Shown here one piece after another: positions 4,825 to 45,677 of a stretch of 47,448 nt of DNA (positions within the stretch are counted from its first letter, which is position 1; the number at the start of each line of letters is the position of its first letter). A program made the position numbers and the translations under genes. The notes beneath the pieces were generated by a model. That model saw only the letters and a list, made by a program, of their open reading frames with translations. It ran no database searches and had not been told where the DNA came from. Source of the DNA: Gammaproteobacteria bacterium. GTDB taxonomy: Bacteria > Pseudomonadota > Gammaproteobacteria > SZUA-152. Location: assembly GCA_021648485.1 (NCBI GenBank), contig JAKISS010000021.1:1-47448 (forward strand), written 5' to 3'.

Positions 4825-5195
4825 AGAGTTTAACTTTGAACGTTGATGGAAGGGCCGTATCGTTTGCTGCCCGCAGGATACGGTAAGCTTGTGAACCCCA
4901 TCAATTGAGTTGCTTTCTGTTTTCTTATTGAAAAATAAAGCCGGGTAAAAACGATGAGGGTTATCGGTTATTTTCTTATTTGCTTTTTATCCATAACGGG
5001 AAAAAGTGAGTAAATGATTGTAGCGCTTCATTGTTTTTGTATCTCTGGTGTTGAAATGTTTGTTTTAAGTCGATACCATCGACATCAGTTGGCACCGGAG
5101 TTGGTGCAGATTCATCCACTTTTCTCGTGCGCATTGTTGGATAAATGCAGTGAAAGGAAACGGATATTCTCGCTCGTGATTTGAGGACGTATTTT
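4825..5195. other. Intergenic region with a stem-loop
   Basis: About 370 bases. A perfect 7-bp stem, CCGTATC (4855-4861) with GATACGG (4877-4883), has an inner CTGC/GCAG pairing. It sits 30 bases past the preceding stop but lacks a T tract, so it is at best a weak terminator or an mRNA 3' structure. The remainder is A/T-rich and should contain the promoter for the multicopper oxidase gene; no clear hexamers were identified. Confidence 0.4.
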
Positions 5196-7301
5196 ATGCG
5201 CCGTAGCGTTGTAATAAAAACTGTTACGCTGGCAGCTTGTCTTGCTGTCCTGATTGTTTTATCCAGTTGTGGTGGTGGCGGTGATTCCGGCAGTGATGCC
5301 CCTAACCAGAAACCCGTCGCAAAGATTTCACCTGCAACTGAACAGTTTGTTCAGGTTGGGGACTCTATCAACTTTACCGGGGACAGCAGTAGTGATCCTG
5401 ACGGGAATACTCCGCTGAGCTACCAATGGACGTTTTCCGGTGCCGAAACGTCAATTGAGCAATCAACCGACAGCAACGCTGGAATGGTATCGTTTACTGA
5501 GGCGGGTGTGGTTACCGTAAACCTGGTGATAACAGATAACCTGGGTCTGGCATCGGATATTGCTGTTGTTACCATCAATGTTGCGGTTGAGAGCAATCAA
5601 CCACCCTCGGGATCAATCAGTCATGACAACGGTAATGGCAGTCTTGGCAGTACCGGCAACGTCACGATTACCGCAGGTGACAGTGTTGTTTTTGCCAGTG
5701 CAATAACAGACCCGGAAAATGATGCCATAACCTATGCCTGGGCTTTCCAGGGTGGGACTCCGGCAACCTCAAACAGCAGCGACACAGTCACCGTCAGCTA
5801 TCCCGATACAGGTACGTTTTCCGTATCGCTGGTTGTCAGTGATGGTAATGGCAACAGCGTGACCCTTCCGGAAACACCGCTACGGGTAACAGTGGTTGCG
5901 AGGCTTCCGGCGTTTAAGCATTTGCCGGTATTACCACCAACCATGGTGGATGACGTGGCAACCTATACGTTAAATGCCGAAGAAAATGTGAATGTTGTGG
6001 TTGAGACGCCAGAGGGAAACTGGACAACACCCATGATGCGTTACAATGACTTATTGCTTCCGCCGGTTATTGTTGCCAAGCGTGGCGATAGCATCAAGGT
6101 GAATGTTAATAATAATCTGCTTGCCAGCGATGAGGATACAACCGTGCATTGGCACGGGTTCAAGATTCCGGGCTCCCAGGATGGTGGACCTGACTTTCCT
6201 ATCCCTGCGGGTGAGTCGAAAACCTATAGTTTTACTCTCGTGCAGCCAGCCGCTTCTCTTTGGTTTCATCCCCATGCCCACGGCACAACGGCTACGCAGG
6301 TCTATAACGGTCTGGCGGGTGCATTTATTCTGACCGACGATATTACGGATGCGCTGGAAACCAACAATGAATTACCTTCGGGTGAGTACGATATTGCGCT
6401 GTTGGTTCAGGATCGCCGGTTTGCAGAGGATTCCAGTGCAACAGGCATACGCAATCTTGTTCACATTCCCCAGCGCGGCATGAACGTGGTATCCGGTGAG
6501 CACATATTGGTTAATGGTGTTGAAATGCCCGCACTGGAAGTGGCGACACGTCAGTACCGGTTTCGATTATATAATGCCTCCAATGCGCGTACGTATGATT
6601 TTGCGCTGGATAACGGTGCTGATTTTTATGTGGTTGGTACCGATGGCGGACTTCTGAATACACCGGTGCTTACCAAGAGCATTATGCTGGGCGCAGGTGA
6701 ACGTGCTGAAATTGTAGTGGATTTTCGCAACCGTCTTAATCAGCAGGTTAAATTAATCAGTCAGGCAACGCCCAATAATGCCGCAGTATCTGATGTCATG
6801 CGCTTTGATGTGAACAGAGAAATGACAGACCCGGTTATTTTATATAGCAGTTTGCCGACTGGCGCAGAAGTTAATACCCGACTGACAGAAGACCAGGCTG
6901 ATGTTACCCGGGATTTTGTGATGAGTATGGGTATGGGGGCTGGTGGAGTACAGTTTTTGATCAATGGTAAGACTTTTGATATGAATCGGGTTGATGAGAC
7001 GGTTGCTTCAGGTGCGGTTGAAATCTGGAATATTCAAAATACCTCGGTGATGGAGCATCCATTCCATGCCCATGCCATACAATGGCAAGTGCTTGATCGT
7101 GAAATTGGTGGGGTAATTTCTCCTGCCAGTGGTATTGATCTTGGCTGGAAGGATACCGTGCTTGTGCAGTCCGGTGAAACGGTCCGGTTTATTGGGAGAT
7201 TTGATCCGGAGGTAAACACCGGCCTGTATATGTATCACTGCCACATTCTGGAACATGAAGATGCCGGTATGATGGGAACTTTTGAAGTGCTGCCGCAGTA
7301 A
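5196..7301 (+). CDS. PKD-domain multicopper oxidase lipoprotein
   Basis: Predicted membrane-anchored copper oxidase of 701 residues. The ATG at 5196 follows GAGG at 5183-5186. A TTG fifteen bases upstream is also open but overlaps that ribosome binding site. A lipoprotein signal ends in LSSC followed by a glycine-rich linker. Residues from about 35 to 220 form two PKD/Ig-like repeats (QKPVAKISP, then PPSGSISHD). The copper-oxidase part follows, with all four copper motifs: HWHG at about 318, HPHAHGT at about 358, HPFHAH at about 621 and HCHILEHEDAGMM from about 681. Type 1, 2 and 3 sites therefore look complete. The substrate cannot be told (Cu(I), Mn(II), phenolics or bilirubin-like are possible in the family). 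PKD repeats in front of the oxidase are uncommon and suggest surface display. It appears monocistronic. Confidence 0.9.
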   Translation: MRRSVVIKTVTLAACLAVLIVLSSCGGGGDSGSDAPNQKPVAKISPATEQFVQVGDSINFTGDSSSDPDGNTPLSYQWTFSGAETSIEQSTDSNAGMVSFTEAGVVTVNLVITDNLGLASDIAVVTINVAVESNQPPSGSISHDNGNGSLGSTGNVTITAGDSVVFASAITDPENDAITYAWAFQGGTPATSNSSDTVTVSYPDTGTFSVSLVVSDGNGNSVTLPETPLRVTVVARLPAFKHLPVLPPTMVDDVATYTLNAEENVNVVVETPEGNWTTPMMRYNDLLLPPVIVAKRGDSIKVNVNNNLLASDEDTTVHWHGFKIPGSQDGGPDFPIPAGESKTYSFTLVQPAASLWFHPHAHGTTATQVYNGLAGAFILTDDITDALETNNELPSGEYDIALLVQDRRFAEDSSATGIRNLVHIPQRGMNVVSGEHILVNGVEMPALEVATRQYRFRLYNASNARTYDFALDNGADFYVVGTDGGLLNTPVLTKSIMLGAGERAEIVVDFRNRLNQQVKLISQATPNNAAVSDVMRFDVNREMTDPVILYSSLPTGAEVNTRLTEDQADVTRDFVMSMGMGAGGVQFLINGKTFDMNRVDETVASGAVEIWNIQNTSVMEHPFHAHAIQWQVLDREIGGVISPASGIDLGWKDTVLVQSGETVRFIGRFDPEVNTGLYMYHCHILEHEDAGMMGTFEVLPQ

Positions 7302-34466: not shown

Positions 34467-36533
34467 ATGGACTTTAATAATATGCGTTGGCAGAACCCTG
34501 CTTGTTGTAAAATACAATTTCTTAAATGTGCAGCTTCAATTTTATTTCTGTTTTTTGTTTTTCCATCTGTAGGGTTTGGCTCAGGTGTCAGTATAGTGAC
34601 CGGCATTGCCGAACCGGGCGGGCAGGTATCGATTAGTCTGGAAGAACTCGGGTATGCAGACGGTATTCATTTCGCGAATACTGAAATCGGCCATGAAGCA
34701 AAGCTGGCTTACTCCCTTCCGCATGATACAAAAGTATCTTCTGCCAGTATTCACCTCCGTTATAACGCTTCATCGTTACTGGGTCAGCGTTCAAATATCC
34801 TGCTGCTGGCGAATGGTCATCCACTTAAGCAGGTGCAGTTGACGGATGAGCAATACCGCCGTGATCTCAGGGTCGAGATTCCTGTCAATGTAATACAGCC
34901 GGGTACTCTGAATATCACCATTAAAGTCACCTTGCTCACCACAAATGATCGTCATCCGGATGCGCGTACCAGCGGTGCTTTACTGCATATTGAAGCAGAT
35001 TCAACACTAACCATTGGCTATCAGGACGATATTGCCTCACTGCGTGATGCCTGGATACTGTTACCCGGGAAGGTGATTCTGACAATACCGGACAGACCCT
35101 TTTCCGAAGATGAATTTAATGCCGTCTGGGGGATCATGGACCATCTGTACCGCCAGGGAAAAAATGTTGTCATTACGCATTATCCTGAAATTGGTCATAT
35201 CGTCATCGGGGACAGATCAAACCTGAAGAAGCAGTTGCTGCTGGAATTACAGTCAGCACAGCCGAAGCAGGAACCCCCGGGCCTGTTGCAAACCCTTGAT
35301 GATGACAACACGATTATGTTGCTGAGCAGCCCGTTGCGCAGTGTTATTTCTATTACCCGGCCTGCTGAGATATCAGCTTCGGCATTGATGAATACCACCT
35401 GGCAAAAACTGGTGGCAGGACACCAGTATAAAGTGCTGACAACCGGTTCCGGTGAAAAATTTACCGGTTCGGATGATGGCATGCATGAGATAAGACTTGC
35501 CGATTTTGGTATGGACACATCAACCCGTTATATTTGGGCCAATACGGAATGGAATCTGTTACTGGATCCTTTCAGGATGCCGGCCGGCACACGCCCGGCG
35601 GTATTGTTTTTGGATTTGATGGTGCCGCCGCCGTCCAATAAGGCAGCGTTCAGTTTATATGCCTATTTGAATGATATTATGGTGCATGCACAACACCTGG
35701 ATGGCCGTGATGGTGTACAGCATCTTCAAATTTCACTACCTGATCGATATCAGCAATTGTATAATAATTTGCGGATACAAATTATGAATACAGAGTCAGT
35801 CAGTGACAATTCTGAACAGGGGCTGACTACATTCCCGGTGCAACTATTGCCAGAAAGCACCTTGATTGTTGAACAAAACACCACGAAACCTGAACGATTT
35901 GTCGATCTTCCGGCCTATCTTGCCGAACAATTTGATATTTACCTGCCTTCGGCCTATCTCGACAGCCCGGAACAGTCATTGCTCTTTACCGCTGCTTTTA
36001 CCGCAAACTTTCCGGTACCTTTTGCTGAGCGTAAGGCTGTTTTTGTCAAACCAGGCAATACCCTGACTCCTGTACGCCCGTTTATTGCATTGGGCGATGT
36101 TGTGTTTTCAGAACTGGATGCACCGGTGCGTTTTGACCAGGGTGTTATTGAGGTCAGGGACAGAAAAGGCGAGTCTTTGTTGAAAGTGAATGAGTTATCG
36201 GGAATCGCCATTGCGCAGCTTGTTACCAGTCATGGTCAGCACGGATTGTGGTTACGTTCCGGTGACAGTGACCCTTACCCGGATGTACGCAGGTTATTTC
36301 TCAATGAAGATGATGTTGCTTTTGCGGATCGCAATGGTTTGCTGTTCAGTCTGAATAGTACGGAGCCTACTTTGGCTAGAGTACATTACCCATCAACCCG
36401 CCACTGGCTGGCAACCATCAGTGAATATCGTTTTTGGATTATGGCTTTTGTATGGCTGCTTCTGGTGCTGGGTATTGTTTATTTGTTTAGACGCCAGCGT
36501 CAACAGCAAAGCAATAACCGTAAGCCTGTGTGA
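34467..36533 (+). CDS. BcsB-like periplasmic subunit of a polysaccharide synthase
   Basis: A 688-residue protein with an N-terminal signal (CAASILFLFFVFPSVGFGSG), a long beta-rich periplasmic region and one C-terminal transmembrane helix (FWIMAFVWLLLVLGIVYLF) followed by basic residues. This is the BcsB layout. The segment LRYNASSLLGQRSNILLLANG and the following VEIPVNVIQPGTLNITIKV resemble the carbohydrate-binding/flavodoxin-like modules of BcsB. BcsB helps the synthase pass the growing chain across the periplasm. ATG 34467 follows GGGGTG by ten bases. It is the first gene of the seven-gene operon and ends 13 bases before the synthase gene. Polymer identity is unknown; it need not be cellulose. 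Confidence 0.8.
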   Translation: MDFNNMRWQNPACCKIQFLKCAASILFLFFVFPSVGFGSGVSIVTGIAEPGGQVSISLEELGYADGIHFANTEIGHEAKLAYSLPHDTKVSSASIHLRYNASSLLGQRSNILLLANGHPLKQVQLTDEQYRRDLRVEIPVNVIQPGTLNITIKVTLLTTNDRHPDARTSGALLHIEADSTLTIGYQDDIASLRDAWILLPGKVILTIPDRPFSEDEFNAVWGIMDHLYRQGKNVVITHYPEIGHIVIGDRSNLKKQLLLELQSAQPKQEPPGLLQTLDDDNTIMLLSSPLRSVISITRPAEISASALMNTTWQKLVAGHQYKVLTTGSGEKFTGSDDGMHEIRLADFGMDTSTRYIWANTEWNLLLDPFRMPAGTRPAVLFLDLMVPPPSNKAAFSLYAYLNDIMVHAQHLDGRDGVQHLQISLPDRYQQLYNNLRIQIMNTESVSDNSEQGLTTFPVQLLPESTLIVEQNTTKPERFVDLPAYLAEQFDIYLPSAYLDSPEQSLLFTAAFTANFPVPFAERKAVFVKPGNTLTPVRPFIALGDVVFSELDAPVRFDQGVIEVRDRKGESLLKVNELSGIAIAQLVTSHGQHGLWLRSGDSDPYPDVRRLFLNEDDVAFADRNGLLFSLNSTEPTLARVHYPSTRHWLATISEYRFWIMAFVWLLLVLGIVYLFRRQRQQQSNNRKPV

Positions 36534-36546
36534 GGCGATAAGATCT

Positions 36547-38448
36547 ATGGATGGCTCAACCATTTTTATGAAGGATACGCTAAGCGATTCTGCTCCGCTT
36601 GGGGAGTTATTGATTGCCCGTGGATTACTTCAACAGAAGCAGCTGGACACTGCGCTTGAATTGCAAAAAAAATGGGGTACACGTCTGGGCGATATTCTGC
36701 TCTCCAAGGGATGGGTGCGTGCTCAGGACTTTTATCTCACGCTTGCCATTCAGTATCAAAAACCATTTGTTGATCTTTTTAAAGAGCGTCCGGATAAAAC
36801 GTTATGGAAAAATGACGAGCTTACCCGTTACACAGAACTGCTTGTGTTGCCTTTGCGTAAAATGGATGAAGGAATTCTGTTTGCTGTGGCCGACCCGACA
36901 CCCGCAGTGTTTGAGTATATGGATGAGCATAGTGATGGTGTGTATGATTATGTCATAACCTCCAAGTTTGACATTATATGGTCAGCGCAAAACGAGGCAG
37001 ATCATCATTTTAGTGACCGGGCCGTGAATGAGCTTGCCCGAGAGCAGCCAGTGAATTCCGCCGGACAGGTCTTTACCCGCGCACAACTGTTCTGGATATT
37101 TGGTTTGTTATCTGTGGTCATTGTGTCCACTACATTCTGGCCCATTGCCACTCTGGTTCTGGCGAATGTTTTTATCAGCCTTTTTATGCTGTTGAATTTC
37201 GGTTTGCGTATGTTGTTTGCATGGGTCGGCAGCCATGCAAAAATTGATGTCAAGGTCACGGATGAAGAAGTTCGTGCGATCAATGATCGTGACTTGCCTT
37301 TTTATACGGTTCTTGTCCCCATGTACAAAGAGCCCAGCGTATTGCCAATTATTACCGAATCGCTGAGAAATATTGACTATCCACTGTCAAAGCTGGATAT
37401 CAAGCTGATACTGGAAGAGGATGACGAGGAAACCATTGCCGCAGCCAAAAATCTTAACCTGGAAAGTATGTTCGAGATTATTCGTGTTCCGGTTTCGCTG
37501 CCGAAAACCAAGCCCAAAGCCTGCAATTATGCACTGAGTTTCGCGCGTGGCGAACTGGTGACGATTTATGATGCCGAGGACAAGCCTGAACGTGACCAGT
37601 TAAAGAAAGCGGTTATCGCTTTTCGCAAAGCGCCGGAGAATACGGCGGTCATTCAGGCGCGCCTTAATTATTTTAACGCCAATGAAAACTGGCTCACACG
37701 GATGTTCACGCTGGAGTACTCCCTCTGGTTTGATTTTTATCTGCCTGCACTTGAGGCACTGAAAATACCCATACCTCTGGGAGGTACCTCTAACCATTTC
37801 AAACTTCGGATTCTGAAAAAAGTTAACGCATGGGATCCCTATAATGTCACGGAAGATGCGGATCTGGGTGTCCGCCTGACGCAGCTGAATTACCATGTGG
37901 GTGTGGTCAACTCGACGACCTATGAAGAGGCTACTAACCGGTTTGGTAACTGGATCAGGCAGCGTTCACGCTGGATCAAGGGTTATATGCAAACGTACCT
38001 TGTGCATATGCGTCATCCTGTGCGCTTGTATCGATCACTGGGGCATGTTGGTTTTTGGGGTTTCCAGTTTTTCATCGGCGGAGCTGTTCTCAGTTGTCTG
38101 TTGGCACCCCTCCTTTATTTAACATATTTCGGCTGGCTGTATACTCAGACCCATGTGCTGGATGTCATTTTCCCCTCTATTATTCTGTATGCCAGTCTGT
38201 TCAGTCTGTTGCTGGGTAACGGGCTGTTGATCTACCTGTCAACATTGTGCGTCTTCAAACGTCACTTGTATCACCTCATACCCTGGGCACTGACGGTCCC
38301 GGTTTACTGGCTGATGATGTCAATTGCGGCCTATAAAGCACTTTGGCAGCTTATTCATAAACCTTTCTACTGGGAAAAAACCACGCATGGCTTGACTAAT
38401 TTTTTGCATGTTGACCCGCGTAAGAAAAAAGATCAGGCCGACGTATGA
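36547..38448 (+). CDS. Processive GT2 polysaccharide synthase with N-terminal MshEN domain
   Basis: A 633-residue inner-membrane glycosyltransferase, BcsA-like. ATG 36547 lies after GAGG; an earlier open start overlaps the BcsB-like gene and adds nothing. Residues about 15-140 are a GspE/MshEN-type domain with two tandem motifs (LGELLIARGLLQQKQLDTAL and RLGDILLSKGWVRAQDFYL), a type known in MshE and NfrB to bind c-di-GMP. Two membrane helices follow, then the GT2 core: VPMYKEPS, DAED (about 342), TEDADLG (about 436) and QRSRW (about 472-476), the full D, DxD, TED, QxxRW set of processive synthases. Four or so further helices close the protein. No PilZ domain is present, so MshEN may replace it as the c-di-GMP switch. 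Confidence 0.88.
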   Translation: MDGSTIFMKDTLSDSAPLGELLIARGLLQQKQLDTALELQKKWGTRLGDILLSKGWVRAQDFYLTLAIQYQKPFVDLFKERPDKTLWKNDELTRYTELLVLPLRKMDEGILFAVADPTPAVFEYMDEHSDGVYDYVITSKFDIIWSAQNEADHHFSDRAVNELAREQPVNSAGQVFTRAQLFWIFGLLSVVIVSTTFWPIATLVLANVFISLFMLLNFGLRMLFAWVGSHAKIDVKVTDEEVRAINDRDLPFYTVLVPMYKEPSVLPIITESLRNIDYPLSKLDIKLILEEDDEETIAAAKNLNLESMFEIIRVPVSLPKTKPKACNYALSFARGELVTIYDAEDKPERDQLKKAVIAFRKAPENTAVIQARLNYFNANENWLTRMFTLEYSLWFDFYLPALEALKIPIPLGGTSNHFKLRILKKVNAWDPYNVTEDADLGVRLTQLNYHVGVVNSTTYEEATNRFGNWIRQRSRWIKGYMQTYLVHMRHPVRLYRSLGHVGFWGFQFFIGGAVLSCLLAPLLYLTYFGWLYTQTHVLDVIFPSIILYASLFSLLLGNGLLIYLSTLCVFKRHLYHLIPWALTVPVYWLMMSIAAYKALWQLIHKPFYWEKTTHGLTNFLHVDPRKKKDQADV

Positions 38449-39932
38449 AAGTGAATCGACAGAGAGCGGATTTTGCCTGGCTATTGTTGCTTGGGGTTTT
38501 GCTGACCGGTTTTTGTCTTTGGTTGACAGGAAACAACTTCAGCCATGAAATGGCACTACGGGACTGGGTGAAGGTGCTGGGTGTTCTGGATGCAGATCCA
38601 TTCCGCCTTGAGAACCTTGGCCTGGATACACCTCATCTGCCTTTGTATTTATTGATACCCTTTGCCTGGTTGTCGCCAGATGCTCAAGGTGTGGCACCGT
38701 ATCTATTATCTACTTTATTGATCGCGCTATTGCTGACGGTTTGGAATCACCAATTGCGTCATCAGGCATTTGTATTGTGGCAACGTCTCCTGCTGCTCAT
38801 GCTGGTATTGTTTCAGGCACCTTTGTTATGGGCAGCCACGACAGGTGGACATCTTGCACTTACCCTTCTGATTTTTTATTTCATCTATCTGGCCTGTTTG
38901 CGGATGAATTTTCAGGCGGATCTGCGTTCTTTTATTATGCTGGGTCTGTTGCTGGGCCTGTTATTTTTTGTTGATGCTGTGGCGTTGTTTATCTTTATCG
39001 CCCTGTTTCCTTTTTTCGCATTAATTGCACCACGGCGTATTTTTCTGGAAGCGCCCTTGAGTGTTTATATTGTTATCTGTATTCCGCTGGGTGTGGCTGT
39101 GTTGGCATGGGCGTATCTTGGCTGGATTTTTGAAGGCGGGCCAGGTCATTTTATTCATCAACCTGGCTCCACATTTCTTGGAGCCAGGCAGTATGCCGCT
39201 GATTCACCCTGGCTGATTCAGTATGGTGGCCAATGGTTTGCGCCACTGGCTGCGGCGTTTATGCTGCTGCTGGTTTATTTTCCCGTTGTTTTTCTGTTGT
39301 TGGCACTGGCCGCAAAACATAAGAATCACCTGAAGGTTACTCTGGCATTGATGTCAGTTCCACTGATTGCCATCGCTTTTGCGACCAGTAAATTTTACCT
39401 TGAGCGTCCGGTTGAACTATTGGCGCTGGTCATGGTGGCGGTTATGGCGGAGCTAAGCGTTCTCCAGGTTAGAAAAGGCTGGACGTTCCCGGCTGTCGTA
39501 CTGCTGCTGATTGCGGGAGGGGCATCTGGCTGGCACAGTTTTCTACAAACGCCGGATCCTATCGTGCGTGACTGGCAAAATGCGCTTTTTGCCCGTTTGG
39601 ATAATGCGCATGCGGCAGATGTTGCATTGGGACAATTCCTGTCTCATCAGCAGGGTAAGGTGCTTATCGATAATTTTACTGCCTATCGTGTTATTGCAGC
39701 TCATGGCGATACAGAAAAAATGGCATTGCCCAAGTCTGACTTGTTCAAGTTACAGGTTCGTCGGCAGGTACCGGATATCCAATACATTGTCGTGCCTGAT
39801 CCGCGTGCAGGCCAGGGGGGCTGGGATCGTATCAATAAACATTTTCCTGACCTGTATCGTTCTGGAATGAAAGACTATCAGCAGGTTTATGATTATCAGG
39901 GTTGGCGGGTATTCAAACATGTTGCTGGCTGA
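38445..39932 (+). CDS. Polytopic membrane protein of the exopolysaccharide operon (GT-C-like)
   Basis: A 495-residue inner-membrane protein with about ten hydrophobic helices, and a periplasmic C-terminal domain from about 395. The early loop motif MALRDWVKVLGVLDADPFRL and the alternating helix/loop plan recall GT-C (ArnT/PMT-like) glycosyltransferases that use lipid-linked sugars, but no decisive catalytic motif was found. It overlaps the synthase gene by 4 bases and the hydrolase gene by 14. It may decorate the polymer with lipid-delivered residues; this is inference. Confidence 0.75.
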   Translation: MKVNRQRADFAWLLLLGVLLTGFCLWLTGNNFSHEMALRDWVKVLGVLDADPFRLENLGLDTPHLPLYLLIPFAWLSPDAQGVAPYLLSTLLIALLLTVWNHQLRHQAFVLWQRLLLLMLVLFQAPLLWAATTGGHLALTLLIFYFIYLACLRMNFQADLRSFIMLGLLLGLLFFVDAVALFIFIALFPFFALIAPRRIFLEAPLSVYIVICIPLGVAVLAWAYLGWIFEGGPGHFIHQPGSTFLGARQYAADSPWLIQYGGQWFAPLAAAFMLLLVYFPVVFLLLALAAKHKNHLKVTLALMSVPLIAIAFATSKFYLERPVELLALVMVAVMAELSVLQVRKGWTFPAVVLLLIAGGASGWHSFLQTPDPIVRDWQNALFARLDNAHAADVALGQFLSHQQGKVLIDNFTAYRVIAAHGDTEKMALPKSDLFKLQVRRQVPDIQYIVVPDPRAGQGGWDRINKHFPDLYRSGMKDYQQVYDYQGWRVFKHVAG

Positions 39933-40983
39933 TAAATTGCGTAATCTGCTGCTGTTATGGGCTTGTATGCTGCTGTTAATCACTCAGAGCGCTGATGCAA
40001 GCTGTTCGTCACCCGTCCTGCATGGATTCAATTTTCTACAGGACAGACAGACTGCACTGGACTCACCAAAGGTTTGCCAGTCGCTTCAGAAACTTCATCA
40101 GACCGGTGCCAATTCTGTCGCTTTTATCCCTTTTATGAAACAGGAAAGCCCACAAACAACGAATCTGTTTTTAGCTGACAATGTGTCTGATAAGGAACTG
40201 ATTGCGGGGATACGTGAAGCAAAACGCCAGGGATTGCATGTTGTTGTTAAGCCGCAATTGCTGGTCAGCGGCTCCTGGGCTGGACGGATTCAACTGGCGA
40301 CAGATGCGGATGAGAAAACCTGGTTCAAACGTTATATTGCGCATTTAACCCACTATGCCAGGATCGCGGAAACCAACAAAGCCGATGCTTTTGTGCTGGG
40401 TACCGAGATGAAACGGCTGAGAAAGAGCAAATACTGGCCGGATGTTATTCAGACCATACGCCGTCACTTTAGCGGGCACATCACCTATGCCGCGCATGGC
40501 ATAGATGGCGTTATTGCATTTCCATACTGGGACTTGCTGGACAGTGTCGGCGTTACATTGTACCCGGTGTTCCCGGAAAAAGCCGATGCCGGCCAAGTGC
40601 GTGAGGTGATTAAACAGCGCATTAACAAACTTGGGGAAATTATCCGCAAACAGAAGGGAAAAACCGCCTGGATACTTGAAATCGGTACACCATCGGCTGA
40701 AGGTTGGGAGCGATATCCCTGGGACTGGCGGAAATTACGCGAGGAAAACCCACGGGCAGACAGCCAAATGCAGGCTGTCATTATGAAAGAGTGGTTAATG
40801 TCTATGGACAGATCATGGATTGAAGGTGTCTGGATATGGAAATGGAGAAGTTCACCGCAAGCCGGGGGTGAAGAAGACCCGGGTTATACGGTACAAAACA
40901 AACCGGCACAGCGGGTGATTCAGACAGCCTGGCAATGTGCCACGTCAATTCCGGATTATGGGCAGGATCTATGCAAAGACTAG
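39919..40983 (+). CDS. GH113-like glycoside hydrolase, exported
   Basis: A 354-residue protein. ATG 39919 begins a signal peptide (LLLLWACMLLLITQSADA). A TIM-barrel of the GH113 type follows: HGFNFLQDRQTALDSPKVC, then GANSVAFIPFM and GLHVVVKPQLLV. VLGTEMKRL supplies the probable acid/base Glu (about 163), and TAWILEIGTPS the probable nucleophile Glu (about 254). GVWIWKWRSSP closes the barrel. Family members cut beta-mannans and related chains. In an exopolysaccharide operon it would trim or edit the polymer in the periplasm, as BcsZ does for cellulose. It overlaps both neighbouring genes. Confidence 0.82.
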   Translation: MLLADKLRNLLLLWACMLLLITQSADASCSSPVLHGFNFLQDRQTALDSPKVCQSLQKLHQTGANSVAFIPFMKQESPQTTNLFLADNVSDKELIAGIREAKRQGLHVVVKPQLLVSGSWAGRIQLATDADEKTWFKRYIAHLTHYARIAETNKADAFVLGTEMKRLRKSKYWPDVIQTIRRHFSGHITYAAHGIDGVIAFPYWDLLDSVGVTLYPVFPEKADAGQVREVIKQRINKLGEIIRKQKGKTAWILEIGTPSAEGWERYPWDWRKLREENPRADSQMQAVIMKEWLMSMDRSWIEGVWIWKWRSSPQAGGEEDPGYTVQNKPAQRVIQTAWQCATSIPDYGQDLCKD

Positions 40984-41816
40984 TTTGTCCAAAATATTTT
41001 AAACAGATGCTGTTTGGTGTGGCCATGTTGACATGTGCAACCATCGTGCAGGCTGCCAGTCCCTGGATGCGTTCTGAAGCAGAGCGTTTTTACTGGGCAG
41101 GTATCACGTATTCAACAGGGGATCAGCGTTGGGACGACAAGAGTAACCAGAAAAAGGTGGACTGTCGAAACAGTGACTGGTACATGCACCAAAAAGTCGA
41201 ATACGGGTATAGCTACTATTACACTCTGATTGCGGGATTAAGTGCCGCCTCTGCCAATTGTGGCGATGACAGTCTGACCGGAGCGGGAGATCTGACCCTG
41301 GGTATCCGGGGACGGCTGGATAAGTATAGCAATGGTAAAAGCTGGGAGATTACGACCATTATTCCGACGGGGTATGAGCGGGATAATTCGTCGCGTCCGG
41401 GTAATGGCCGGTTTGGTATCGAGGCAGGTGTCGCCTGGTTACTCAAAGAGGGAGAGGGAGAATTGACCAGTTCCTGGTCATGGCAGGGAGGGGTTGCCAT
41501 TCGACTTTGGCAGGGGCCACCTGCGGACCAGTTTCTCGGTTACTTATCGGTACAGCGCCGTATTGCCGCCGTTGGTAAAATTGGTATGCGCATCAGCGGT
41601 GATTTTTCTTTTCGCAATGAATCGCCTGAAAAAACAAAATTTGAAAATCGTACCCGCTTGACGGATTTCGATAAATTAAGAGCCGCAGTCTCATGGTCCA
41701 GTCGTATCAATGCGCGCTGGTCCTGGCAAACTAATGTTGGTCATGTCCTGTGGGGTAGAAACGTAACTGACAATCTGACTGTTGGTTTAAACATCAGCTA
41801 TGACTGGAGCCAGTGA
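40971..41816 (+). CDS. Outer-membrane beta-barrel protein of the exopolysaccharide operon
   Basis: A 281-residue protein. ATG 40971 lies 5 bases after AGGA inside the end of the hydrolase gene. A signal peptide ends at about VQAAS. The rest is rich in amphipathic strands (YEYGYSYYYTLIAGL-like, AGDLTLGIRGRLD, WSWQGGVAIRLW) and ends NLTVGLNISYDWSQ, a plausible barrel terminus. It is a candidate outer-membrane channel or anchor for the polymer. No match to BcsC or AlgE is evident. It overlaps the CotH gene by 4 bases. Confidence 0.72.
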   Translation: MQRLVCPKYFKQMLFGVAMLTCATIVQAASPWMRSEAERFYWAGITYSTGDQRWDDKSNQKKVDCRNSDWYMHQKVEYGYSYYYTLIAGLSAASANCGDDSLTGAGDLTLGIRGRLDKYSNGKSWEITTIIPTGYERDNSSRPGNGRFGIEAGVAWLLKEGEGELTSSWSWQGGVAIRLWQGPPADQFLGYLSVQRRIAAVGKIGMRISGDFSFRNESPEKTKFENRTRLTDFDKLRAAVSWSSRINARWSWQTNVGHVLWGRNVTDNLTVGLNISYDWSQ

Positions 41817-43654
41817 ACCTTGTGAAATTATCCATTGATTTTATTTACCGACCTGCCGGGATAGTGGTGTTATCCAGGGTGCTTGTATTGTTTTTTCTGA
41901 GTATGGCTGTCCATGCAGATGAGCGATGGACCGCAGATAAAGCGAGCATGGTTAAAAATGCCGAAGAGCAAACCGGTTTATCCCGGATAAGTATCGGTAC
42001 CCTGCATCTCAAAATGCGACCGATTGATGCAGACGTTCTGTTTCGTAAAGATCCGCACGATAAATCCTCATTCGCCGTCAGCATCGTGGATGACACCGGA
42101 GAAATATTGAAAGGGCGTATCAAGGTATCAGGTAGTTTCACTCGCCGTTTCCCTAAGAAAAGTATTTCTATCAAGCTTGAAAATGGACAGCTGTGGAAAG
42201 GCCAACAAAAAGCATCCCTCGATGCCATGGCAACCGATGGCTCGATGCAGCGTGAATGGCTTGCCTGGCAATTGGTGCATGCGCTGGGCATGCCTGGCCC
42301 TGAACTGCAATACGTGCGTGTCTATATCAACAACCGCTACAGCGGGCTGTTTATGCATACCGAGTGGCTCGATACCGGCGTTATGGCACGTTACAGACTG
42401 GGTGCTGACGGACAGTTTTTTCATCCTTCAGACTCACAGTTCTGTGGTGATTTTCTGCCACATAGCAAAAAAAACCTGAAAGACTGCTGGTTTAAACTCT
42501 CACCACGGGATAAGGATTTTTCACCTTTGCAGACACTTATGGATGAAATTGCGCAAACACCGATTAAAGCATTTCATGAATACCTTGAAACGCACTTTGA
42601 CGTTGATTCGGTAATTAATTGGCTGGCACTCAATGTGCTCACCAGTAATGGTGATACCTATAATAAAAACTACTTTCTTTATCGGTCAACGGTTACCGGG
42701 AAGTGGGTGGTTATCCCCTGGGATTATGACCTGTCTTTCGGGCGTAACTGGGATGCTTATCTTCCCTTTCCCGAAAACATCCTGAATGATAATTTTCAGT
42801 ATTTTTATCCTCCTGAACTGGGTGCGCCCAATCCATTAAAAGAAAAAACATTACGCAACCCGGCACTCAATCAGCTTTTCACTGAACGAATGTTGCACTT
42901 ACTGGGCGAGGAACAACATGGGGCAGAGGCAACTTTTGGCTGGTTCAGCCCGCAAGCCATGCAAGAACGTATTAACAGTACCGCGAGCAGATTACAGCCT
43001 GAACGCATTGATGACCCCTATCTTAAAGACAGTGCGATTGATTTTGCGCAGGAAACGGAAAGCCTTTGGCATTATGTACAGCGACGGCATGCGTATTTAC
43101 GTGAAATTTTCACAGGCGTTGTTCCCTGGAACCCGGAGCTGGCAATCTGGAATCCGGTGGATGCACCACCACGCCCGGCATTGAGCGTCAGTTTATTTGC
43201 CAGCCAGCAAGTCTCCGGTAACGGACAGTATGCAATAATCGCAGCACCGGCTTATGGGTATTTGCTGGCGGCGATAAAACTGAAAGATAATAACGGGGAG
43301 GCTGCCAAGTTCAACGTTGAGTCTGACATAAAGCACACACCCGCTATTTTCCCGCCCGGCTATGATCCTGCATCCTGCATTCAGCGCAGCTGGTTTATTA
43401 CTTTGCGAACACCCTTCACATCGCGGGTCATGGATTTGCAACTGGATTATTTACAGGAAGACTCACGGCGACAGGAACTGGGAAGCGGTGGTATTGAGCA
43501 AAATCTTACACTTTGGGTGTTGGATGGACAGCGCTGGCACAAGCTCAAAACGCAGGTCAATCCCTTGTCAAATGTGATCAGCACTCAAAATATGACAATC
43601 AACCCATCACAAATGCTGCGTTTTGTTGCCTGTCCGGAAAGTACAGAAAGTTAA
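41813..43654 (+). CDS. Exported CotH-family kinase-like protein
   Basis: A 613-residue protein with an N-terminal export signal (IVVLSRVLVLFFLSMAVHA), so it acts outside the cytoplasm. The CotH kinase core is clear: GRIKVSGSFTRRFPKKSISI with lysines at 115-116, VRVYINNRYSGLFMHTEWLD, NWLALNVLTSNGDTYNKNYF with candidate catalytic Asp at about 281, and VVIPWDYDLSFG with metal-binding Asp at about 304 and 306. CotH proteins are atypical ATP-dependent protein kinases. About 170 residues at the C-terminus form a separate beta-rich domain with the sequence FPPGYDPASCIQRSW. The GTG start overlaps the previous stop; a second GTG lies nine bases later. It shares one base (TAATG) with the transporter gene. 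Confidence 0.85.
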   Translation: MNLVKLSIDFIYRPAGIVVLSRVLVLFFLSMAVHADERWTADKASMVKNAEEQTGLSRISIGTLHLKMRPIDADVLFRKDPHDKSSFAVSIVDDTGEILKGRIKVSGSFTRRFPKKSISIKLENGQLWKGQQKASLDAMATDGSMQREWLAWQLVHALGMPGPELQYVRVYINNRYSGLFMHTEWLDTGVMARYRLGADGQFFHPSDSQFCGDFLPHSKKNLKDCWFKLSPRDKDFSPLQTLMDEIAQTPIKAFHEYLETHFDVDSVINWLALNVLTSNGDTYNKNYFLYRSTVTGKWVVIPWDYDLSFGRNWDAYLPFPENILNDNFQYFYPPELGAPNPLKEKTLRNPALNQLFTERMLHLLGEEQHGAEATFGWFSPQAMQERINSTASRLQPERIDDPYLKDSAIDFAQETESLWHYVQRRHAYLREIFTGVVPWNPELAIWNPVDAPPRPALSVSLFASQQVSGNGQYAIIAAPAYGYLLAAIKLKDNNGEAAKFNVESDIKHTPAIFPPGYDPASCIQRSWFITLRTPFTSRVMDLQLDYLQEDSRRQELGSGGIEQNLTLWVLDGQRWHKLKTQVNPLSNVISTQNMTINPSQMLRFVACPESTES

Positions 43655-45003
43655 TGAAGAATACGATAAAGCTGCTGGCTGGCCGCGTGATGTCACTGTC
43701 CGCAACGATACACAGTGACGAAATAGGCCCAACACTTAAACTGGCGCTGCGGATTTTTCTTATTCTGTTTGCTTATTACCTGCTCAAGCCTGCTCGTGAA
43801 GCTTTTATTCTCACTGATGGTAGTGCGGAGCTGCGTAGTTATTCTGTGGCTTTACAGGCATTGGTGCTTTTTATTGTTATTCCGTTATACAGCACGCTCT
43901 ATAAACGTGTGGCCGGTGAAAAGCTCTATAACAGAATCACACTTTTTTTTGTTGTGACATTACTGGGTTTCTGGCTGCTTGGTGTTAATGGTATGGCAAT
44001 CAGTGTGCCGTTTTTTATCTGGCTGGGCATTTTCAGTGTCACACAGGTTGCCCAGTTTTGGGCGCTGGTGACGGATTTGCATCATCCCAAATCAGGCAAG
44101 CGTCTGTTTGCAATTATCGGTTTTGGGGGCTCTTTAGGGGCAGTGCTAGGGTCCAGTTTTGCTTCAGAGCTGTTTGTCTATTTTGGACCCTACAATCTGT
44201 TATTACTGGCGGCCGTCATTCTGTTGCTCAGCAGTATTGCTGTGCGGGTTAAAGCGACGAATTCCAGCGCCGCCACCCAGGCCGCAAAGGCGGTTGACTG
44301 GCATGCCATGCTGGGTGGTCTGCATCTGGTGATAAAGTTACCTTATCTGCGGATTCTGGCCATATTCGTTGTATTACTGAATTGTGTTAATTCAATCGGC
44401 GAGTATATTCTGGCAAGCATGGTTGTTGATCATTTTGCTGCGATCACCACCAGTAGTGAACGCGGCATTTTAATTGGCGAATTTTATTCGGACTTTTTCT
44501 TCTGGGTAAACCTGGCCAGTTTGTTATTGCAGTTTTTTATTGTCTCAAGAATTTACCGCTTGATTGGTGTGTCCGGAGCAATATTGTTACTGCCATTGAT
44601 CACCACGATTGGTTATACATTAATTGCGTTTTTCCCCATTTTTGCAGTAGTGCGTATGATCAAAATTATTGAAAACAGCACAGATTACTCGATAACGGCC
44701 ACTAGCCGCCATGCGCTTTTCCTGCCCGTGTGTACGGACTCAAAATACCTGGGGAAAACCACAATTGATACCTTCTTCTGGCGGCTGGGTGATTTGATTC
44801 AGGCAGGAATCGTTTTTGCGGGTACCACTTTGTTCAAATTAGAGCTTGGTGCCTTTGCTATGCTCAATGTTTTGCTTTCACTATTGTGGTTATGGGTCGG
44901 TATACGAATAGGGCGGTACTATAAACATTACACAAGGCAGTCGGCACTCACCGGTACAATTGACATGAGCAAGCCCGTACTCTCTAAAAAACAGAGCCCT
45001 TGA
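43654..45003 (+). CDS. Nucleotide-transporter-family (NTP/NDP exchange, TLC-like) membrane protein
   Basis: A 449-residue inner-membrane protein with about eleven or twelve helices. KLALRIFLILFAYYLLKPAR, SYSVALQALVLFIVIPLYS and FWALVTDLHHPKSGKRLFAI followed by GFGGSLGAVLGS are typical of the Npt/TLC-like branch of the MFS fold. Members in intracellular bacteria swap ATP for ADP across the membrane. The function of members in free-living bacteria is not settled. The ATG overlaps the CotH stop by one base, so the two are translationally coupled. It is the last gene of the compact operon. Confidence 0.82.
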   Translation: MKNTIKLLAGRVMSLSATIHSDEIGPTLKLALRIFLILFAYYLLKPAREAFILTDGSAELRSYSVALQALVLFIVIPLYSTLYKRVAGEKLYNRITLFFVVTLLGFWLLGVNGMAISVPFFIWLGIFSVTQVAQFWALVTDLHHPKSGKRLFAIIGFGGSLGAVLGSSFASELFVYFGPYNLLLLAAVILLLSSIAVRVKATNSSAATQAAKAVDWHAMLGGLHLVIKLPYLRILAIFVVLLNCVNSIGEYILASMVVDHFAAITTSSERGILIGEFYSDFFFWVNLASLLLQFFIVSRIYRLIGVSGAILLLPLITTIGYTLIAFFPIFAVVRMIKIIENSTDYSITATSRHALFLPVCTDSKYLGKTTIDTFFWRLGDLIQAGIVFAGTTLFKLELGAFAMLNVLLSLLWLWVGIRIGRYYKHYTRQSALTGTIDMSKPVLSKKQSP

Positions 45004-45191
45004 TAGCCAGCTTACTATTACGTCACACGGCGGAATTCTGCATTATCAGGTGCGGTGTTGAATTTTGATGATATAATGAACAAGTTCGTACCTTGCAATG
45101 CGAATTAGGTGACGAATCACGCTGTTAGGGTAGCGCTTAATTCACATTTCAGATTAATTTAACCAACTTATAAATTTGCTGATTGATATCC

Positions 45192-45677
45192 ATGGAAAAA
45201 GTTAACGTTTTATTCGTTTGCATGGGCAATATATGTCGCTCACCGACGGCTGAGGGGGTTTTTACCCGGCATGTAGAGGAAGCTAATCTTACCGATGTTA
45301 TCGGCATCGATTCAGCAGGTACGCATGCCTATCATATCGGGGAGGTTCCTGATCCCCGCTCGCAAAAAACGGCACTGAAGCGCGGTTATGATTTATCTTC
45401 ACAAAAGGCACGACGCGCGATTGCCGAGGACTTTACCATCTTTGATTATATTCTGGCCATGGACAGAGACAACCAGCAGGGTTTGCAGGCCATTTGTCCA
45501 GTGGGTGCAGAATACAAATTACATTTATTTTTAAGCTATGCGCCCAACCTTGAGCATGATGAAGTACCAGACCCGTACTACGGTGGCCCGATGGGATTTG
45601 AACGAGTACTGGATATGATTGAAGAGGCTTCAGCAGGTTTGCTTCAGGATATACAACTACGCTATTTGCAGAATTGA
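45192..45677 (+). CDS. Low-molecular-weight protein tyrosine phosphatase
   Basis: A 161-residue cytoplasmic phosphatase. ATG 45192 gives MEKVNVLFVCMGNICRSP with the CX5R loop at Cys 10 to Arg 16. The general-acid loop is VPDPYYGG near 120. ILAMDRDN is also typical. Family members such as Wzb and Ptp control exopolysaccharide assembly by dephosphorylating tyrosine kinases; no cognate kinase is visible here. It lies 188 bases after the transporter gene with its own likely promoter, and it ends shortly before a strong terminator. Confidence 0.93.
   Translation: MEKVNVLFVCMGNICRSPTAEGVFTRHVEEANLTDVIGIDSAGTHAYHIGEVPDPRSQKTALKRGYDLSSQKARRAIAEDFTIFDYILAMDRDNQQGLQAICPVGAEYKLHLFLSYAPNLEHDEVPDPYYGGPMGFERVLDMIEEASAGLLQDIQLRYLQN

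What the first reader, a model, noticed from the sequence alone, without database searches (positions are those of the whole stretch)
41813..45003. Exported CotH kinase translationally coupled to a nucleotide transporter
The CotH-family protein has an export signal and intact kinase-type residues (NGD and WDYD motifs), yet the periplasm has no known ATP pool. The very next gene shares one base with it and belongs to the family that contains ATP/ADP exchangers. The simplest reading is that the transporter delivers nucleotide outward to feed a periplasmic phosphorylation reaction on the polymer or on a protein of the exopolysaccharide machine. I know of no described system of this kind.
Basis: partly seen in the sequence, partly recalled or inferred. 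Interest (0 to 1): 0.78.

Follow-up and report, generated by a model that had tools for sequence, protein, structure and literature searches.

The report
Exported kinase paired with nucleotide transporter
In bacteria that build stalk-type surface sugars, a kinase sent outside the cell membrane is inherited beside a transporter with the fold of the known ATP/ADP exchangers, which suggests, without proving it, a way to supply energy for phosphorylation outside the cytoplasm.

Summary
Observation confirmed. A CotH-family protein with an export-type N-terminus and both catalytic aspartates (41813-43654) shares one base with a TLC-family transporter (43654-45003). They end a seven-gene exopolysaccharide operon starting at 34467.

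The operon is a gammaproteobacterial form of the published sfz ("stalk formation in Zetaproteobacteria") cluster. That paper lists a CotH protein (Sfz6) and a neighbouring "ATP-ADP antiporter" but, in what I read, proposes no link.

The pair recurs. Of 69 orthologous clusters with enough flank, 18 have CotH and 17 of those also have the transporter nearby; none of 51 without CotH has it. One CotH sublineage carries a different TLC transporter. Ferriphaselus keeps both gene types unlinked. Relatedness leaves only two independent contrasts, so this is conserved co-inheritance.

Best reading (0.5): the transporter delivers nucleotide to the periplasm for CotH to phosphorylate the polymer or a partner. 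Nucleotide specificity, direction, activity and substrate are inferred.

The parts
34467..36533 (+). BcsB-like periplasmic subunit (Sfz1-like)
   Evidence: PF03170 E=4e-15; conserved in order in related loci
36511..38448 (+). MshEN-type (c-di-GMP motif) + GT2 synthase (Sfz2/XagB-like)
   Evidence: Glyco_trans_2_3 E=4e-22; NF053729 c-di-GMP motif E=5e-16; orthologues at 63-89% identity in 6 of 368 other class genomes, the next match by score being 27% identical
38445..39932 (+). 495-aa membrane protein of no named family
   Evidence: no Pfam or NCBIfam match; conserved in order
39889..40983 (+). GH113 glycoside hydrolase (Sfz4 position)
   Evidence: PF22612 E=4.4e-44
40935..41816 (+). 293-aa protein of no named family, perhaps an outer-membrane protein (guess from sequence)
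   Evidence: no family; conserved beside CotH, also in an unlinked CotH locus of Ferriphaselus
41813..43654 (+). exported CotH-family kinase (Sfz6-like)
   Evidence: PF08757 E=1.1e-56; phmmer 5jd9 E=6e-22
41813..41917 (+). signal peptide of CotH (residues 1-35, cleavage after AVHA)
   Evidence: sequence, hydropathy; cleavage site by eye
42653..42655 (+). codon of D281 (NGD), equivalent of B. subtilis D228
42722..42724 (+). codon of D304 (WDYD), equivalent of B. subtilis D251
43654..45003 (+). TLC/NTT-fold transporter, sfzA subtype

Best explanation
The two genes form an accessory phosphorylation module of a synthase-dependent exopolysaccharide machine of the sfz/xag type, probably c-di-GMP-responsive. 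The TLC-fold transporter in the inner membrane exchanges nucleotides and so brings a phosphoryl donor (most likely ATP, against ADP plus phosphate) into the periplasm. There the exported CotH kinase phosphorylates the nascent polymer or an envelope or matrix protein of the same machine. Shown here: gene order, family membership, fold, export-type N-terminus, intact catalytic Asp, conserved co-inheritance. Inferred: that the transporter carries nucleotides, the direction, that CotH is active, and its substrate. GH113 here, and a ManC-like gene after the transporter in one genome of the Mariprofundus family (L203), hint at a mannose-containing polymer (weak inference).
Against: The window's transporter keeps 1 of 4 charged residues important in AtNTT1; K155 and K527 mutants of AtNTT1 lose or greatly weaken nucleotide binding (passages of PMC3306366). 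Only two phylogenetically independent contrasts exist for CotH/transporter co-occurrence, not significant. One orthologous cluster (G088, L052) has CotH and no adjacent transporter (the genome has a TLC of another clade, L046). A second sfz-type cluster in M. micogutta (L202) has none in the 16 kb fetched, although the genome has one elsewhere. Two relatives that branch outside the CotH-linked sfzA group have no CotH found in their genomes (L251, G468, 99% complete; L043, G028, 62% complete). Lipoprotein-like CotH in G709, G754 and G245 live in genomes without any A4-type transporter at E up to 1e-10. The TLC relatives beside Tat-signal aldo/keto reductases keep none of the four charges, so the wider group may carry other substrates.
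Confidence: 0.5

Rival explanations
1. The transporter has diverged from ATP/ADP exchange and moves another solute for the machine (another nucleotide, a nucleotide sugar, phosphate, or a dinucleotide); CotH gets its donor by some other route.
For: K155, E245 and K527 equivalents are missing in every sfzA member aligned; relatives without these residues sit beside aldo/keto reductases, mostly with Tat-type signals (22 of 57 non-sfz loci examined), enzymes that use NADPH as a family (recalled).
Against: The fold is closest to the NTTs, 6 to 9 Z units above the next MFS; the transporter follows CotH, not the synthase: 51 clusters with synthase and without CotH lack it nearby; the replacing sfzB lineage has near-canonical residues.
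Confidence: 0.27
2. CotH and the transporter are neighbours by shared ancestry of one operon only; they act independently in stalk/EPS formation.
For: All sfz CotH are one clade (97/97; the outside rows were fragments); only 2 independent contrasts; an sfzA-like transporter occurs without CotH in G468.
Against: Replacement of the transporter by another TLC lineage in one CotH sublineage; both retained, unlinked, in Ferriphaselus; overlap of 1-4 bases in five loci.
Confidence: 0.15
3. CotH acts in the periplasm without ATP, with polyphosphate or another donor, or as a structural pseudokinase; the transporter recycles products.
For: In some non-sfz CotH loci the neighbours are a VTC-domain protein (polyphosphate polymerase family) and a DUF4956 protein (L053, L055, L205, L212), as published for Gram-positive Pel loci (passages of PMC7112168).
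Against: No VTC or DUF4956 match in the window's genome (86% complete); both catalytic Asp are invariant in sfz CotH.
Confidence: 0.08

Closest known systems
sfz cluster of stalk-forming Zetaproteobacteria (Koeksoy et al. 2021, PMC8250860) and the xag-like genes of iron oxidisers (PMC4643136)
   Same: BcsB-like, EpsE/MshEN-type + GT2, glycoside hydrolase, CotH protein, and an ATP-ADP antiporter in the neighbouring cassette; one search finds the same order in M. ferrooxydans PV-1 and M. micogutta
   Different: Window CotH lacks the long SH3-bearing N-terminus (613 vs 1,415-2,270 aa) and is coupled to the transporter by a 1-base overlap; the sections read propose no CotH-antiporter link, and say that stalk-forming Betaproteobacteria lack sfz6 and the cassette, whereas Ferriphaselus R-1 has both gene types elsewhere
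B. subtilis CotH, spore coat kinase (PDB 5jd9)
   Same: Kinase domain and both catalytic Asp
   Different: Here with signal peptide and an extra C-terminal part of about 170 aa without a significant PDB sequence match (best E 0.14), in an EPS operon
Plastid/chlamydial ATP/ADP translocators AtNTT1 and C. pneumoniae NTT1 (9j3l, 9j3n)
   Different: 16-17% identity; K155, E245 and K527 equivalents missing
CotH-VTC-DUF4956 accessory genes of Pel and other loci (PMC7112168, PMC12345266)
   Same: Secreted or membrane-anchored CotH attached to a synthase-dependent polysaccharide operon
   Different: VTC and DUF4956 instead of a TLC transporter

Membership tests
CotH kinase family (PF08757) | profile match above curated cut-off | tested here: met
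   193.2 bits vs 23.8
CotH kinase family (PF08757) | catalytic Asp equivalent to B. subtilis D228 and D251 | tested here: met
   D281, D304; aspartate in 21 of 21 sfz-type copies
CotH kinase family (PF08757) | ATP-dependent phosphotransfer | not testable with these tools
   needs protein
TLC/NTT ATP/ADP antiporters (PF03219) | profile match above curated cut-off | tested here: met
   35.1 bits vs 21
TLC/NTT ATP/ADP antiporters (PF03219) | NTT fold | tested here: met
TLC/NTT ATP/ADP antiporters (PF03219) | charged residues K155, E245, E385, K527 (AtNTT1 numbers) | tested here: not met
   V65 (or S64), G125, E250, D380: 1 of 4; so a TLC-family member by profile and fold, not filed as an ATP/ADP antiporter
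TLC/NTT ATP/ADP antiporters (PF03219) | ATP/ADP exchange | not testable with these tools
   needs transport assay
sfz/xag exopolysaccharide cluster | ordered BcsB-like, MshEN-GT2, membrane protein, glycoside hydrolase and 293-aa-type genes with orthologous synthase | tested here: met
   synthase tree
sfz/xag exopolysaccharide cluster | role in stalk formation | not testable with these tools
   no phenotype known to me for the window's unnamed organism
CotH-VTC-DUF4956 module | VTC and DUF4956 genes beside CotH | tested here: not met
   none in the operon; no match in the window's genome, 86% complete

The most novel reading that the evidence does not exclude
A dedicated bacterial periplasmic phosphorylation system: a TLC transporter run outward supplies ATP to an exported Fam20-like (comparison recalled) CotH kinase that phosphorylates a matrix polysaccharide or protein, in stalk-forming iron oxidisers perhaps to give the anionic scaffold on which iron oxides form. 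More widely, TLC relatives would supply nucleotide cofactors to exported enzymes (ATP to CotH, NADPH to Tat-exported aldo/keto reductases).
Probability: 0.35. Interest if true: 0.88.

Novelty: new variant of a known kind. Interest (0 to 1): 0.66.

Why it matters
Kinases outside the bacterial cytoplasm need a phosphoryl donor; for B. subtilis CotH the source of ATP is called an unanswered question (passage of PMC7821199). A conserved CotH-transporter pair, present in cultured iron oxidisers such as M. ferrooxydans PV-1, makes the question testable, and gives a mechanistic proposal for two sfz-associated genes that the 2021 paper left without a joint function.

Tried and rejected
Chance adjacency was rejected by recurrence in 17 clusters, near-copies included. 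The idea that the transporter serves the synthase itself was rejected because 51 synthase clusters without CotH lack it nearby. The idea that CotH is a dead kinase was not supported by sequence. Statistical proof of coupling failed: two independent contrasts only. The C-terminal part of CotH gave no significant PDB sequence match; no structure of CotH could be obtained because the queue was full, so its fold was not tested. Foldseek's own listing was not obtained for the transporter model; the second-look aligner was. Stalk phosphorus as support was dropped: PMC4643136 (passages) reports Fe and P in stalks of OYT1 and R-1 and calls the P likely phosphate adsorbed on iron oxyhydroxides. The phosphatase gene at 45183-45677 was found beside the cluster only in the same genus among the loci scanned.

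Its printed table is 16/2/0/51; I count L103 as positive. L094 carries the transporter in two overlapping frames at a contig end, and L093 in two overlapping frames; both were counted as present. M. micogutta's second cluster (L202) is not in that table. Of the 51 negatives, unlinked copies were looked for in only four genomes: L101 (both gene types found), L104 (no transporter), L112 (one transporter of undetermined clade) and L128 (no CotH). L095's genome gave no CotH, L108's gave one on another contig. Among the 17 non-adjacent CotH hits, the G594 fragment and the G485 C24 copy lie near a contig end.
Full report
What is there. The CotH gene (41813-43654) and the transporter gene (43654-45003) are as described, sharing one base. 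They are the last two of seven closely packed genes from 34467: BcsB-like, MshEN-type/GT2 synthase, an unnamed 495-aa membrane protein, GH113, an unnamed 293-aa protein, CotH and transporter. The GT2 gene is a good marker. Of 369 genomes of the class, six besides the window's own have an orthologue at 63-89% identity; the next match by score is 27% identical.

The cluster is known. A full-text search (terms CotH and ATP-ADP antiporter) found one paper, PMC8250860. I read its outline with abstract, sections 15 to 18, and search passages. It describes the sfz cluster of stalk-forming Zetaproteobacteria: Sfz1 BcsB-like, Sfz2 EpsE-type N-terminus plus GT2, Sfz4 glycosyl hydrolase, Sfz6 SH3 plus CotH, and an adjacent five-gene cassette whose first listed gene is an ATP-ADP antiporter. 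It says no potential function can be conferred on sfz6, and in these sections does not connect it with the antiporter. PMC4643136 (passages) describes the related xag-like genes. The listings of searches showed no paper with a nucleotide supply for CotH in title or abstract start; the library holds open-licence papers only, and I read passages of a few, so this is not proof of absence.

Recurrence. A scan of named genomes with the synthase alignment gave 80 loci. Of 69 clusters with enough flank, the printed table is 16 with both genes, 2 with CotH only, 51 with neither, 0 with the transporter only. One of the two CotH-only cases, Mariprofundus erugo (L103), was an artefact of the locus end: its genome (G767) shows transporter coordinates identical to those of G410, where the transporter match starts 788 bases past the CotH domain. 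That leaves 17 of 18, the exception being L052 (G088). Clusters with both genes come from several gammaproteobacterial families, a Thiobacillus and Mariprofundaceae. The Xanthomonas, Pseudomonas, alphaproteobacterial and acidobacterial clusters in the table lack both nearby. Fisher's p on the printed table is 8e-14, but the tree puts all clusters with CotH in one group of 25 rows and treekit finds only two independent contrasts, so the p-value must not be read as independent evidence; near-copies (for example L033, 98% identical in GT2) are in the count.

In a phylum sample of 398 genomes, CotH was found in 31 (36 hits) and TLC-like transporters in 62. 19 CotH hits have a transporter within 3 kb downstream on the same strand: the window, 17 genomes of one family (f207, the Mariprofundus family judging by identical coordinates of L098, L100 and L103) and G460, whose locus is also sfz-type (L200). 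The other 17 hits do not: second copies in G404 and G485, a contig-end fragment in G594, and all CotH hits of G245, G417, G486, G493, G544, G664, G709, G717, G732, G754 and G766.

Two facts go beyond shared linkage. First, CotH of L093 (Thiobacillus) and L096 (Piscirickettsiaceae) are sisters (99/98) inside the sfz CotH clade, yet their transporter belongs to another TLC lineage (here sfzB); holding sfzA and sfzB together as one clade is rejected at AU p = 0.016, with the program's cautions about long branches and about groups named after seeing data. In L093 it lies upstream of the operon, in two overlapping frames. Second, Ferriphaselus R-1, whose sfz-like operon lacks both genes nearby, has a 1489-aa sfz-type CotH directly behind a GT2 (bcsA-type), bcsB and GH8 genes, a 708-aa CotH beside a protein of the 293-aa type, and an sfzA-type transporter beside feoB, on three other contigs. 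That transporter is 49% identical to L092's and branches next to the CotH-linked sfzA group with weak support.

The kinase. All 21 sfz-type CotH proteins have a hydrophobic N-terminal stretch, mostly followed by an A-x-A-like site by eye. L088 has LAAGC, a lipobox by eye; the script's own pattern flagged L096 instead, at an unlikely place. D228 and D251 equivalents are present in all 21. In M. ferrooxydans SH3 domains precede the kinase domain.

Other CotH proteins. Non-sfz CotH in L053, L055, L205 and L212 have VTC and DUF4956 neighbours, and L206 a DUF4956 neighbour, as in Gram-positive Pel loci (PMC7112168, passages); PMC12345266 (passages) describes the S. intermedius CotH as secreted. L207, L208 and L209 look like lipoproteins by eye in genomes without an A4-type transporter. 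So an exported CotH does not generally need a TLC neighbour. VTC and DUF4956 gave no match in the window's genome, which is 86% complete.

Verdict. Co-inheritance and fold make nucleotide supply to an exported kinase the best single reading (0.5). The missing charged residues are the chief objection, and a changed substrate the chief rival (0.27).

Noticed in passing
L034, L035, L036, L037, L039, L040, L041, L042, L048 and 13 of the 40 loci L214-L253: TLC-like transporters of a sister clade sit beside an aldo/keto reductase: 9 of 17 loci from relatives examined (L011 and L044, short contigs, were not) and 13 of 40 from the phylum sample; a twin-arginine (Tat-type) motif was seen in 18 of these 22. 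A cofactor-supply pair for an exported reductase is possible.
   Followed up: partly
L046, L047, L050, L238, L240-L243: A third TLC clade lies next to exported-looking Beta-lactamase2-family proteins, including the second transporter of several genomes of the Mariprofundus family.
   Followed up: partly
L257:1442-12174: Ferriphaselus R-1: a 1489-aa sfz-type CotH follows GT2 (bcsA-type), bcsB and GH8 genes of a cellulose-type operon; PMC8250860 says stalk-forming Betaproteobacteria lack an sfz6 homologue.
   Followed up: partly
L053, L055, L205, L212: CotH flanked by or next to VTC-domain and DUF4956 genes in Pseudomonadota, like the Gram-positive Pel accessory genes.
   Followed up: partly
L260 (G773, 3.3-kb contig): The Desulfobulbaceae genome of L108 has a CotH match (E 5.8e-38) just after a protein of the 293-aa type on a short contig; whether a transporter follows is cut off.
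   Followed up: no
window 5181-7301: 706-aa protein that reads like a secreted multicopper oxidase with PKD-like repeats (by eye; no family search).
   Followed up: no
window 45183-45677: Low-molecular-weight tyrosine phosphatase (PF01451) about 180 bases downstream; seen beside the cluster only in the same genus among the loci scanned.
   Followed up: partly
L203:5894-7309: In G500 (Mariprofundus family) the next gene on the strand after the transporter is ManC-like (GDP-mannose supply), which fits GH113 in the operon and a mannose-containing polymer.
   Followed up: no
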